This document shows positions 4,962-49,820 of a stretch of DNA of 64,000 nucleotides, piece by piece. The stretch is from positions 62,001 to 126,000 of the forward strand of contig SUXH01000001.1 of assembly GCA_015061055.1 (NCBI GenBank), read 5' to 3'. Source of the DNA: Bacteroidales bacterium (GTDB lineage: Bacteria; Bacteroidota; Bacteroidia; Bacteroidales; Muribaculaceae). The notes under the pieces were generated by a model that saw only the letters and a program-made list of their open reading frames with translations, was not told the origin of the DNA and did not search any database. Position numbers and translations under genes: made by a program. Numbering within the stretch: position 1 is the stretch's first letter; every line of letters starts with the position of its first letter.

Positions 4962-5198
4962 TTAAAATTTAATCTCATCAATAACATCATAAGGTATTGA
5001 TATCATTTCCATATTATGTACACCAATGCGTGCCGCTTCAGATTTACTGATTTTTAGATTTACGACCAACGGAGTTTCCTGATTTAAACCTTCAGCACCA
5101 AAGTAAGTACCATTATAAACATCTCCATTATTTACAGAAATAGAACAATTCTGACCATAATGACCTGTCAATTTGTTTAATAAGTCATACGCATCCAT
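4962..5198 (-). CDS. Small Sm-like hypothetical protein
   Basis: 78 residues, no signal peptide, first gene of the minus-strand operon. The order of a helix (MDAYDLLNKL), strands with a central turn (ISVNNGDVYNGTYFGAEG), a hydrophobic strand (PLVVNLKI) and a last strand (ISIPYDVIDEIKF) is like a short Sm/LSm barrel with its Sm1 'G..Y.G' turn. This is a fold guess from pattern only; conserved Sm RNA-binding residues are not clear. An AGGAGG lies about 20 nt upstream of the ATG on the minus strand. The gene looks real because of its tight spacing to the HEPN-like gene. Function unknown. Confidence 0.55.
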   Translation of the reverse strand: MDAYDLLNKLTGHYGQNCSISVNNGDVYNGTYFGAEGLNQETPLVVNLKISKSEAARIGVHNMEMISIPYDVIDEIKF

Positions 5199-5283
5199 TT
5201 TATATTATTTTTGTGTGCCTCCTATGTCCTCTAATTTGGCGGTTTATGTAACTATACAAAGAAAGCGCGGGACATTGATCAGT

Positions 5284-5469
5284 TTATCTTATCAGAGGTA
5301 TCGCCAAACACCCACACAGAAATAAACAGTCCACCCACGCCCAACCTATATATTCACCCCCGCTTACAGGAGTGGATACGGCAAGCACAGCGTCTTTTGA
5401 CTGCTTTCTCCTTCTGTGTTTGAAAATTGGCGATTTTCTGATAAAGGATAAAGCTAATACGCTTTCCAT
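5284..5469 (-). CDS. Possible short ORF with unusually strong Shine-Dalgarno (doubtful)
   Basis: 61 codons starting ATG GAA AGC, with a full AAGGAGG (5478-5484) 8 nt upstream. This is notable because Bacteroidales genes usually lack strong Shine-Dalgarno sites. The peptide is basic in its first half (KHRRRKQSK) and Trp/Cys-containing in the second, without a family I recognise. A second overlapping frame on the same strand (5354-5557) is open through the same region, so the coding frame is uncertain. It may instead be a leader RNA or a decayed repeat. It sits upstream of, and could be co-transcribed with, the Sm-like/HEPN/LRR operon. Confidence 0.25.
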   Translation of the reverse strand: MESVLALSFIRKSPIFKHRRRKQSKDAVLAVSTPVSGGEYIGWAWVDCLFLCGCLAIPLIR

Positions 5470-5516
5470 AAATATGTCCTCCTTGACAATAACTCTTTAT
5501 ATGCCAAAGATTATTG

Positions 5517-5524
5517 CAAAGATA
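5517..5524 (-). promoter_or_regulatory. Bacteroidetes -7 element upstream of the short ORF and the Sm-like/HEPN/LRR operon
   Basis: The minus strand reads TATCTTTG, matching the TAnnTTTG -7 consensus of the Bacteroidetes primary sigma factor. No clear TTTG -33 box at the expected distance. If used, transcription would start near 5510 and give a leader of about 310 nt before the 78-residue gene. Confidence 0.4.
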
Positions 5525-5589
5525 GCGAAAAAATGTTATCGGTGGGGTTATATCCAATAAAATATTGAAAAAATGATTTAAAGTTGCAT

Positions 5590-37587: not shown

Positions 37588-37618
37588 TTTGTTAGGAAAA
37601 TAATTATAATTAATTTTG
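37588..37618 (+). promoter_or_regulatory. Promoter of the structured RNA gene
   Basis: TTTG (37588-37591), 19-bp spacer, TAATTTTG (37611-37618): a full Bacteroidetes consensus directly ahead of the predicted RNA, after dnaA's terminator. Confidence 0.7.
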
Positions 37619-37624
37619 TATGTG

Positions 37625-37937
37625 CCTGCGTCGAATGTTTCAGGAGTGAGACGGTGGGGCGGGCATAGTTTTTATGGAAAGACGTTTACTTGACGTTTTG
37701 TTTTTGGCTTATCAAAACTTAGGAACTTTTGAAATCACAGTCAAAAATGAGATAAAAGGTAGATGTCTGTGTGGTATGTATATACCGGCTCTGTGTGCTA
37801 CCCTTAGCAGGGTAGTGCATGGAGTTGTAATTATACAATCGACGTAGGTATCTTGATTTACTCGTTTTACTGTGGTGGGTTTCCTAAGACCTTGATAAGC
37901 GGAACGAGTGAAGAGTACAGATTCCTGCGTTTTTCTT
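37625..37937 (+). ncRNA. Structured non-coding RNA of about 310 nt, identity not recognised
   Basis: Bounded by a full promoter and a T-rich 3' end (37930-37940), with no protein-like ORF. Nested long-range helices: 37641-37647/37921-37927, 37694-37700/37900-37906, 37708-37715/37892-37899, 37718-37725/37881-37888, 37734-37740/37870-37876 and 37744-37751/37861-37868. Three apical hairpins follow: 37773-37777/37782-37786, 37798-37803/37810-37815 and 37825-37829/37834-37838. Several pairs are G.U only when the plus strand is the RNA, fixing the strand. It is a long rod with a branched head. It lacks the RNase P, tmRNA and 4.5S hallmarks I know. A Bacteroidetes 6S-like or lineage-specific RNA is possible, but I cannot assign it. 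Confidence 0.7.
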
Positions 37938-37993
37938 TTTATTAATAATAAAAATATGCCTGTTTGAGGAGTCTGGTGGGTGAAATAAAAATT

Positions 37994-38788
37994 ATGGAAT
38001 GTACGAGTAATTTAACAATCGATTCTTTTAGGGAAGAAGATTACGTGAGGTTAATGGATAAAATATATGTGCATAAATCGATTGATTTAAAAAAGAAAAT
38101 ATATCATTATTTACCTTTGGAATATTTATTACCTATTTTAGAAAATAATAAGTTTAGAATTTCTAATAGGAGGAATTTTACAGATTTAAGTGAAAAAGGG
38201 CAAAAAGGTGATATTAAAAAATGTTTTAGAATGTGCTATAGTTCTCCTGATAATAAAGAAAGAGAAATTAATTTAATACGTGAAAATGAATTATCTGAAA
38301 AGATTAGAATATCATATAGTATCTGTGTTTCTTGTTGGACTTATGATACACATATTGTAGAAGGACTTGGCAATGAAGTTGACGAAAATTTTTTGATGTG
38401 GAAAGCTTATACAGGTGGTATTACTGGAGTACGAATAGAAACAACTATTGATGATTTTTTGAATTCAATAAAAGAAACGCCTTGTTATATATTAGTCAGA
38501 AATGTAGAATATAAAAAAGAATCATTTACTAATACTGTGGAAGAATCAATATTTAATAAAACTATATATTATAGCAAAGAGCAGGAATTACGAATTTGTG
38601 CATTATGCTCGGCTGATAAATTATGTTTAGATGTTGATGTGTCTAAAATGATTCATGGGATTTGTTTATCTCCGTTTATTTCAAATACCTATGCTGATTT
38701 TATCAAAAGATCATTGGAGAAAAAATATGAATTTCTACAAGAAAAGATAAAAAAATCAAGATTATTAGAATATAAAAAGAATGTTTAA
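37994..38788 (+). CDS. DUF2971 family protein
   Basis: 264 residues from ATG 37994 (a TTG 10 codons upstream is in frame but unlikely). Cytosolic, AT-rich. The layout matches DUF2971: YHYLPLEYLLPILENNKFRISN near the start, a Cys-rich middle (ISYSICVSCWTYD), then MWKAYTGGITGVRIETT and a late PFISNTYADFIKRS. The function of the family is unknown to me; it is often seen in accessory and defence-rich regions. First of three orphan genes that follow the RNA gene. Confidence 0.7.
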   Translation: MECTSNLTIDSFREEDYVRLMDKIYVHKSIDLKKKIYHYLPLEYLLPILENNKFRISNRRNFTDLSEKGQKGDIKKCFRMCYSSPDNKEREINLIRENELSEKIRISYSICVSCWTYDTHIVEGLGNEVDENFLMWKAYTGGITGVRIETTIDDFLNSIKETPCYILVRNVEYKKESFTNTVEESIFNKTIYYSKEQELRICALCSADKLCLDVDVSKMIHGICLSPFISNTYADFIKRSLEKKYEFLQEKIKKSRLLEYKKNV

Positions 38789-49002: not shown

Positions 49003-49280
49003 ATTTTTTTGTTATTTAGTTATTACTTTGTTTCTTTTTTAGTAGTACCTCTTCGAGGTGCGAGGGGGGTGGTATGTTTCTTACCGGAGGTATCGCTTTG
49101 CACACCATAGGTTACTCGAAATCACACCCTTCGGGCGTTTTAAACTCTTTGAACGAATTAGTCCAAGGAGCCTTATTAGCCTAATTTGGCTTATCCAATT
49201 TTTCTGTTTTTTGTATAGAATTATTTTGCACTGGGAGGTTCAAGTTGGTGCGTGTTTTCAAAAATGGTTTACGGTTAGGG
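49003..49280. other. Non-coding region upstream of the LRR lipoprotein gene
   Basis: Contains the second copy of the dispersed repeats (49049-49088 and 49129-49142) in otherwise featureless sequence. No ORF worth calling. No clear promoter for the LRR gene was recognised. Confidence 0.5.
49049..49088. repeat. Dispersed repeat, copy 2
   Basis: CTCTTCGAGGTGCGAGGGG...CTTACCGGA; matches 5590-5628. The companion block CTTCGGGCGTTTTA follows at 49129-49142 instead of about 140 bp away as in copy 1. Confidence 0.65.
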
Positions 49281-49281
49281 C

Positions 49282-49512
49282 ATAAAAGAAAGGTGTGAAC
49301 CTCTTTAACTTATCCTTAGATAGGCTCTGGACTGCCCTGCGATAGATAAATTAAAACAGTTCACACCTTTGGTTGTATATGATTGTTAGTACACATATAT
49401 ACATTACCAAAGGAGAACGCTTTGTCATTCCTATCGCAAATGAATTGTCCAGATTCATCTAATGGAATATGCTAAACGTCTTCCTAATATGTCAATGTTG
49501 CTCTCTTGCAAC
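49282..49512 (-). ncRNA. Structured RNA candidate with a loop-loop pseudoknot and built-in terminator
   Basis: Read on the minus strand: a 5' hairpin (49496-49501/49508-49513, TGTTGC/GCAACA on the plus strand) and a hairpin ATGAAT-CTGGACA-ATTCAT (49440-49458). A long 3' hairpin has helices 49359-49370/49289-49300 (12 bp) and 49345-49355/49304-49314 (11 bp) and a 30-nt loop. Loop segments 49326-49332 and 49338-49345 are complementary to 49447-49453 and 49431-49438, so the two hairpins can pair with each other. One pair of the 11-bp helix is G.U only on the minus strand, and a T-rich tract follows the 3' hairpin on that strand. A TAAATTTG -7 motif lies at 49518-49525. Identity unknown. Confidence 0.6.
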
Positions 49513-49517
49513 AAGTG

Positions 49518-49525
49518 CAAATTTA
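49518..49525 (-). promoter_or_regulatory. -7 element of the minus-strand RNA candidate
   Basis: Minus strand TAAATTTG; the expected -33 box is not evident. Confidence 0.4.
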
Positions 49526-49820
49526 AAAAATATTTAGCAAATTGCGTTCTTTTTGTGAACTGTTTTTTTTGTTTTTCTTGAAATAAACGTAAAATATTGC
49601 TTGCAAAACGTTGATTTAACTCTTATAAGCCATGAGACCAATGCTCGGTTAATCCTCTGATTTACAAGTATAAAGTTACAACTTTTTATTTGATTATGCA
49701 AGTTTTCTGATACTTATTTTTTGTAATATTTATATGTTTTAAGTGGTTGATTTTATGATAGTTGAGAATTGGTGTTTAATAGTCGAAAGGTTTTATCTAT
49801 TGTGTAATAGGTGTAATCTG

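What the first reader, a model, noticed from the sequence alone, without database searches (positions are those of the whole stretch)
37588..37940. Unidentified ~310-nt structured RNA gene between dnaA and an orphan cluster
A full promoter (TTTG-N19-TAATTTTG) directly follows the dnaA terminator. It leads into a sequence with six nested long-range helices of 7-8 bp (listed in the feature), three small apical hairpins and a T-rich end. Wobble pairs (for example 37748.37864, 37735.37875, 37646.37922) are valid only on the plus strand. This rod-with-branched-head shape does not carry the RNase P, tmRNA or SRP hallmarks I know. It could be a Bacteroidales 6S-type RNA or an undescribed class.
Basis: partly seen in the sequence, partly recalled or inferred. 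Interest (0 to 1): 0.8.

Follow-up and report, generated by a model that had tools for sequence, protein, structure and literature searches.

The report
New multi-copy Bacteroidales leader RNA
The sequence after dnaA is one copy of a previously undescribed, roughly 330-nucleotide structured RNA that gut Bacteroidales carry in several to many copies, each placed directly in front of an unrelated gene, where it probably acts as an RNA switch in that gene's leader.

Summary
Window 37620-37942 folds at -125.8 kcal/mol on the plus strand (z -8.2), has the Bacteroidetes promoter stated, and matches no Rfam family even at E<=10.

It is not a lone gene. A covariance model built here finds a multi-copy family: 35 of 37 genomes of the same bacterial family (up to 17 copies), 70 of 295 Bacteroidales genomes, and none of the 295 other genomes in a phylum-wide sample. 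The window holds two more, weaker copies. Covariation is unequivocal: one helix uses all four Watson-Crick pair types at 96-100% pairing.

Each copy has its own promoter and lies just upstream of a same-strand gene (155 of 163; median gap 69 nt), almost never with a second promoter between (3 of 117). The genes are unrelated. So it is a 5' leader, not 6S, RNase P or tmRNA.

The RNA's 3' end is complementary to a site just before the start codon (replicated on 74 fresh copies against swapped-partner controls). Two mutually exclusive pairing schemes are both conserved: a long rod, and local hairpins ending in a U-tract.

Best explanation: a bistable attenuator-type leader. Family, structure and leader position are shown; switching, termination and any signal are inferred.

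The parts
37588..37618 (+). Bacteroidetes-type promoter: TTTG 37588-37591, 19-nt spacer, TAATTTTG 37611-37618
   Evidence: sequence; TAnnTTTG within 200 nt upstream in 68 of 73 copies versus 7.1 +/- 2.3 in shuffles, peak 50-80 nt before the core
37621..37667 (+). 5' hairpin (P0) with conserved GGGCGGG-type 3' strand
   Evidence: MFE structure; similar hairpin in most copies
37678..37934 (+). conserved RNA core recognised by covariance model R1 (179 bits)
37681..37697 (+). P1 hairpin (GACGT/ACGTT); its 5' strand alternatively pairs with 37928-37934 at the rod base
37701..37747 (+). hairpin A: stem 37701-37708/37740-37747, whose large loop holds the 5' strands of H1, H2, H3
   Evidence: 94.7% of cells paired, 5 of 8 pairs with change on both sides
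37708..37899 (+). long-range helix H1, strands 37708-37715 (CTTATCAA) and 37892-37899 (TTGATAAG), hypervariable in sequence
   Evidence: 98.0% paired, all 8 pairs with changes on both sides
37718..37888 (+). long-range helix H2, strands 37718-37724 and 37882-37888
   Evidence: 96.8% paired, 5 of 7 pairs with changes on both sides
37735..37875 (+). long-range helix H3, strands 37735-37741 and 37869-37875, hypervariable in sequence
   Evidence: 80.8% paired, all 7 pairs with changes on both sides
37758..37765 (+). GGTAGATG, most conserved segment
   Evidence: alignments A1 and A3
37787..37828 (+). copy-specific apical hairpin
37842..37930 (+). helix PA: strand S2 37842-37848 (ACGTAGG) with 37924-37930 (CCTGCGT), directly before the U-tract; encloses helix PB 37860-37867/37902-37909
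   Evidence: PA 99.7% of cells paired, 4 of 7 pairs with changes on both sides; 3' domain local fold mean z -4.1
37918..37926 (+). S3, CAGATTCCT, complementary to S4
   Evidence: replicated
37930..37940 (+). U-tract TTTTTCTTTTT
   Evidence: sequence; conserved in relatives
37967..37975 (+). S4, AGGAGTCTG, 9-bp complement of S3, 18 nt before the start codon, inside a small GCC...GGT hairpin
37994..38788 (+). downstream gene, DUF2971 protein (264 aa), first gene behind the leader
49287..49483 (-). second, weaker copy of the leader (26.5 bits), ahead of a BspA-like LRR gene 49002-47686
5261..5466 (-). third, weaker copy of the leader (22.6 bits), ahead of ORF 5198-4962 and a BspA-like gene 4484-2100

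Best explanation
This is one copy of an undescribed, multi-copy, cis-acting 5' leader RNA of Bacteroidales. It is transcribed from its own promoter and continues into the next gene. The leader can take two mutually exclusive folds. In the rod fold (R), the 5' and 3' arms pair over their whole length (H1-H6). In the local fold (T), hairpins P1 and A form in the 5' arm, and the nested PB/PA hairpin forms in the 3' arm directly before a U-tract, like an intrinsic terminator. In R the 3'-terminal heptamer (S3) is free to pair with S4 just before the start codon. I propose that the choice between R and T sets how much of the downstream gene is transcribed (attenuation at the U-tract), and that S3:S4 sets access to the start region in read-through transcripts. 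Shown: the RNA family, its covarying structure, promoter and leader position, conservation of both pairing schemes, and S3/S4 complementarity. Inferred: switching between the folds, termination at the U-tract, the role of S3:S4. Unknown: what signal is sensed.
For: Fold z -8.2. R fold on 50 sequences: 94.4% cells paired, 330 cells changed on both sides versus 107 +/- 9 in shuffles and at most 98 with slid partners, covariation score 0.432 versus 0.165 +/- 0.007. T fold: 95.2% paired, 38 cells changed on both sides versus 12.4 +/- 2.8; PA 99.7%. PA and H5 share columns 211-212, each almost fully paired with both partners, so the two cannot coexist. Promoter in 68 of 73. First downstream ORF on the same strand 155 of 163 versus upstream gene 86 of 163; median gap 69 nt; only 3 of 117 have a promoter motif in the gap. 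In nine copies from different genera, homology starts at the promoter -7 box and stops at the S4 hairpin, with unrelated flanks. S3:S4 pairing score 15.1 versus 11.6 +/- 0.2 shuffled and 12.3 +/- 0.2 with swapped partners (96 copies); replicated at 16.2 versus 11.6 +/- 0.2 and 12.8 +/- 0.3 (74 fresh copies). Both folds are stable in silico, R about 10 kcal/mol better on average. H1 and H3, which have a partner in one fold only, are sequence-free while segments with two partners are conserved, as a bistable RNA predicts.
Against: No transcript data. The simple terminator scan finds none here, because the PA/PB loop exceeds its 8-nt limit. S4 is transcribed after the U-tract, so it cannot act as a classical antiterminator. 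The downstream genes share no function, which is unusual for a sensor of one signal. The T-fold covariation is modest apart from PA, and the alignment was made with conserved sequence. A conserved pseudoknot or kissing complex could mimic two alternative folds.
Confidence: 0.5

Rival explanations
1. A small RNA gene that ends at the U-tract and is encoded in tandem with its target. The released RNA base-pairs through S3 with S4 in the leader of the adjacent mRNA and controls its translation.
For: Own promoter and U-tract; seed-like heptamer complementary to a site before the neighbouring start codon, better with the own than with swapped partners. Multi-copy sRNA families that repress near start codons through seeds exist in Bacteroides (FopS, PMC11697453).
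Against: Then the downstream gene needs its own promoter, but a promoter motif lies in the gap in only 3 of 117 copies. Strict adjacency and near-constant spacing are unnecessary for an RNA acting in trans.
Confidence: 0.25
2. A leader that recruits a protein (for example an RNA-binding protein or a NusG-type antitermination factor) to many unrelated genes. The conserved framework is the binding site and the rod is a scaffold; there is no metabolite and no intrinsic switching.
For: Framework strongly conserved in sequence while downstream genes are unrelated (51 Pfam families among 91 proteins), which suits a general factor.
Against: No candidate protein was identified; the conserved alternative pairings need an extra reason.
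Confidence: 0.15
3. A DNA-level mobile or recombination element whose hairpins only incidentally look like RNA.
For: Near-identical units next to unrelated genes and flanks in different genera; a chimeric pair L194/L196 that joins at the GACATA motif.
Against: Homology begins at the -7 box and ends before the start codon, i.e. follows the transcribed leader; plus-strand fold far better than minus; same-strand gene always downstream; no terminal repeats or target duplications were seen in the alignment.
Confidence: 0.05
4. A 6S-type or other housekeeping RNA.
For: Long imperfect hairpin of a few hundred nucleotides; 6S-Flavo is not detected elsewhere in this genome.
Against: No Rfam match; multi-copy; absent from many Bacteroidales genomes; fixed position before genes; RNase P RNA and tmRNA lie elsewhere.
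Confidence: 0.01

Closest known systems
Transcription attenuators and riboswitch leaders (general kind)
   Same: structured 5' leader, alternative exclusive helices, terminator-like hairpin plus U-tract before the gene
   Different: no known aptamer; downstream genes unrelated; about 330 nt; strands paired in one fold only are hypervariable; a conserved complement to the 3' end lies beyond the U-tract
6S RNA (6S-Flavo RF01685)
   Same: long imperfect hairpin, Bacteroidetes
   Different: multi-copy, upstream of genes, different length and sequence, no model match
FopS multi-copy sRNA family of Bacteroides (PMC11697453)
   Same: multi-copy in Bacteroidales, canonical promoter, pairing near start codons
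   Different: FopS is about 65-70 nt with a single-stranded 5' seed and a plain terminator; this RNA is about 330 nt, rod-shaped and always next to its putative target
DUF805 RNA motif (RF03081)
   Same: cis-regulatory candidate, found in the same leaders of some members (L186)
   Different: a separate 68-nt element lying between this RNA and the gene; no sequence relation
Large ornate RNAs (GOLLD, ROOL, OLE)
   Same: large, strongly structured bacterial RNAs of unclear function
   Different: no Rfam match to any of them; this one is a leader with fixed distance to a gene and covaries as one long rod

Membership tests
6S RNA | matches 6S covariance models | tested here: not met
   no Rfam match at gathering score or E<=10
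6S RNA | single housekeeping locus | tested here: not met
   7 matches by genome search plus 2 further in the window, at least 9 places in this genome
6S RNA | binds RNA polymerase holoenzyme | not testable with these tools
   needs co-purification
RNase P RNA | matches RF00010, one per genome | tested here: not met
   genome's RNase P RNA is at G000:C14:10239-10624
tmRNA | tRNA-like domain and tag ORF | tested here: not met
   ARAGORN none in window; tmRNA at G000:C10:116926-117322
cis-acting leader / attenuator (kind) | lies in the 5' UTR of a same-strand gene at near-constant distance, without a second promoter | tested here: met
   155 of 163 same strand, median 69 nt; promoter motif in the gap in 3 of 117
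cis-acting leader / attenuator (kind) | mutually exclusive conserved helices | tested here: met
   columns 211-212 pair in PA (100%) and in H5 (96-100%); covariation counts
cis-acting leader / attenuator (kind) | terminator hairpin plus U-tract that stops transcription | tested here: inconclusive
   PA helix 99.7% paired directly before a conserved U-tract, but simple terminator scan negative; no transcript data
cis-acting leader / attenuator (kind) | signal-dependent change of downstream expression | not testable with these tools
   needs reporter or RNA-seq
riboswitch | conserved aptamer with coherent regulon | tested here: not met
   first downstream proteins fall into 51 Pfam families among 91 proteins, LRR_5 commonest with 8
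FopS sRNA | 65-70 nt, single-stranded 5' seed plus terminator hairpin | tested here: not met
   length and structure differ (PMC11697453)

The most novel reading that the evidence does not exclude
A horizontally spreading regulatory RNA module that Bacteroidales attach to unrelated accessory and surface genes, whose 5' and 3' arms recognise each other through copy-specific complementary helices (H1, H3), so that many co-expressed leaders fold or act only on their own gene: an addressable RNA control layer with no described counterpart.
Probability: 0.25. Interest if true: 0.92.

Novelty: categorically new. Interest (0 to 1): 0.82.

Why it matters
Muribaculaceae and Prevotella-type bacteria are major members of animal guts, and few of their RNA regulators are known. 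A large RNA class present in up to 17 copies per genome, in front of surface proteins, lipoproteins and many unknown genes, would be a major unrecognised layer of gene control. The class can be tested at once in cultured species that carry it (Paraprevotella clara, Bacteroides caecigallinarum, Prevotella ihumii, Xylanibacter rarus). The pattern of helices that must pair but are free in sequence, next to segments frozen because they have two partners, offers a clear handle on bistable RNA folding. The label 'categorically new' refers to the RNA family: it belongs to no known one. The general kind it most resembles, a structured leader, is known.

Tried and rejected
Rfam at gathering score and at E<=10: nothing relevant for the long or the short form. 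6S, RNase P, tmRNA: rejected. Plasmid and phage collections: no match by blastn with one member; the virus collection gave three contigs, so it is mainly chromosomal. Empty-site test at dnaA: gene order after dnaA differs in all relatives, so no clean insertion boundary could be drawn. Leader-peptide idea (ATG in GGTAGATG): read by eye, frames end at different places and the apical hairpin varies in length; no formal coding test was made. Idea that H1/H3 are gene-specific barcodes under diversifying selection: not supported as such. H1 identity is random (0.35) even where the framework is 90-96% identical, but an orthologous gene pair (L129/L144, 70% aa identity) also differs (H1 1/5, H3 0/5) and some copies with different genes share barcodes, so free compensatory drift under a frozen framework is the simpler reading. 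Regulon by downstream protein family: no single function. Papers on structured RNAs in 26 and 50 bacterial genomes do not mention Bacteroidetes in the main text; supplements could not be read.

Full report
Observation. The promoter TTTG-N19-TAATTTTG is at 37588-37618. The stretch 37620-37942 folds at -125.8 kcal/mol (z -8.2; 0 of 100 shuffles as good) on the plus strand and at -71.4 (z -4.3) on the minus strand. No Rfam family matches at gathering score, nor anything relevant at E<=10.

Family. A blastn search in 61 genomes gave partial matches in several genera. From 13 members I built an alignment and a covariance model, R1. R1 matches 41 of 61 related genomes at E<=0.01: 35 of 37 in the window's own bacterial family and 6 of 24 elsewhere in the order, with up to 17 copies per genome. 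Order-wide it matches 70 of 295 genomes and 47 of 178 genera at E<=1e-5, including a shorter form of about 165 nt. In a phylum-wide sample only the window's own genome matched. These are minimum figures, because the multi-genome searches use strict filters. In this genome seven places match and two weaker copies lie inside the window at 49287-49483(-) and 5261-5466(-); both have the promoter, the conserved GACATA..AAAGCG/GACGTTTA start, the U-tract and an S3/S4 pair. An independent exact-pattern scan of named genomes returned 117 stretches before its limit, and R1 confirmed each of the 83 loci tested (80 from that scan, 3 viral). Named carriers include Bacteroides bouchesdurhonensis, Paraprevotella clara, Prevotella ihumii, Xylanibacter rarus and Bacteroides caecigallinarum.

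Structure. In a 50-sequence alignment, the strongest covarying column pairs are all long-range rod pairs, with UA, AU, GC and CG all common at 98-100% pairing. On alignment A3 the rod fold has 94.4% of cells paired and 330 cells changed on both sides, versus 107 +/- 9 in shuffles and at most 98 with slid partners. A second set of helices is also conserved: P1, A, PB and PA (95.2% paired; PA 99.7%, including a 34:15 split of A-U and G-C at one pair). PA and H5 use the same two columns (211-212), each almost fully paired with both partners, so the sets are exclusive. Rod and local folds are both stable in silico, the rod by about 10 kcal/mol more on average. This supports, but does not prove, two alternative conformers.

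Position. Over 173 copies, the first downstream ORF is on the same strand in 155 of 163 cases and the upstream gene in 86 of 163. The median gap from the RNA end to the ORF is 69 nt. ORF starts were called by a simple rule, so distances are approximate. The promoter motif TAnnTTTG lies upstream in 68 of 73 copies versus 7.1 +/- 2.3 in shuffles, and in the gap before the gene in only 3 of 117. In nine copies, the homologous block begins at the -7 box and stops at the small hairpin before the start codon, while both flanks are unrelated. The conserved unit is therefore the transcribed leader. The first downstream proteins are diverse: 51 Pfam families among 91 proteins, BspA-type LRR_5 commonest with 8; by a crude hydrophobicity rule 89 of 142 have a signal-like N terminus. 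In the window the gene is a DUF2971 protein.

3'-end complementarity. The heptamer just before the CACGC-U-tract (S3) is complementary to a site (S4) in the gap before the gene. In the window it is CAGATTCCT (37918-37926) with AGGAGTCTG (37967-37975), nine pairs. Over 96 copies the pairing score was 15.1, against 11.6 +/- 0.2 for shuffled sites and 12.3 +/- 0.2 for swapped partners. I fixed the test there and repeated it on 74 new copies: 16.2 versus 11.6 +/- 0.2 and 12.8 +/- 0.3. Related copies are not independent, so these are not strict probabilities, but the swapped control holds composition and motif constant.

Hypervariable helices. Between copies with 90-96% framework identity, H1 identity is 0.35 and H3 0.45, whereas H2 is 0.99, PB 0.98 and PA 1.00, yet H1 stays 98% paired. 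H1 and H3 have a partner in one fold only; the conserved segments mostly have two. That is what a bistable RNA predicts, and free compensatory drift suffices; diversifying selection is not required.

Mechanism. I favour an attenuator-type leader whose rod and local folds compete, with the local 3' hairpin before the U-tract acting as terminator, and S3:S4 controlling the start region in read-through transcripts. The steps after the structure are inference. The main rival is a tandem-encoded small RNA acting on its neighbour; the lack of a second promoter argues against it. A general protein-recruiting leader is also possible.

Known relatives. No membership in 6S, RNase P, tmRNA, FopS or any Rfam family. 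DUF805 RNA (RF03081) occurs between this RNA and the gene in one member and is a separate element. I found no description of this RNA in the papers searched, but subscription papers and supplements were out of reach, so earlier listing as an unnamed candidate cannot be excluded.

Limits. No transcript data; genomes are partly metagenome assemblies; E-values from R1 are rough; alignments rest partly on conserved sequence.

Noticed in passing
window 49150-49530 (-): Second copy of the leader RNA, ahead of a BspA-like LRR lipoprotein gene (49002-47686); 83% identical over 430 nt to another copy in the same genome (L093).
   Followed up: partly
window 5180-5530 (-): Third copy of the leader RNA, ahead of a 78-aa ORF, a 149-aa ORF and a 794-aa BspA-like gene.
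   Followed up: partly
L186 4471-4539 (-): The known DUF805 RNA motif lies between this leader RNA and its gene, so two cis-regulatory candidates are stacked in one leader; L185 has a similar sequence.
   Followed up: partly
L194 4488-4705, L196 1713-1930: Two species share an identical RNA core and downstream gene (94.6% over 1961 nt) but have different promoters and 5' hairpins, with the join at the GACATA motif, which suggests recombination between leaders.
   Followed up: no
L203 4288-4512, L199 region and other loci: A small helix-turn-helix-like protein of about 70-75 aa (MxIHIGKLIKSVLKLQGRSVTWFAKxL..) recurs as the first gene behind several leader copies.
   Followed up: no
G111, G272, G033, G035 contigs: Many leader copies lie within a few hundred bases of contig ends, hinting that near-identical repeats next to them break the assemblies.
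   Followed up: no
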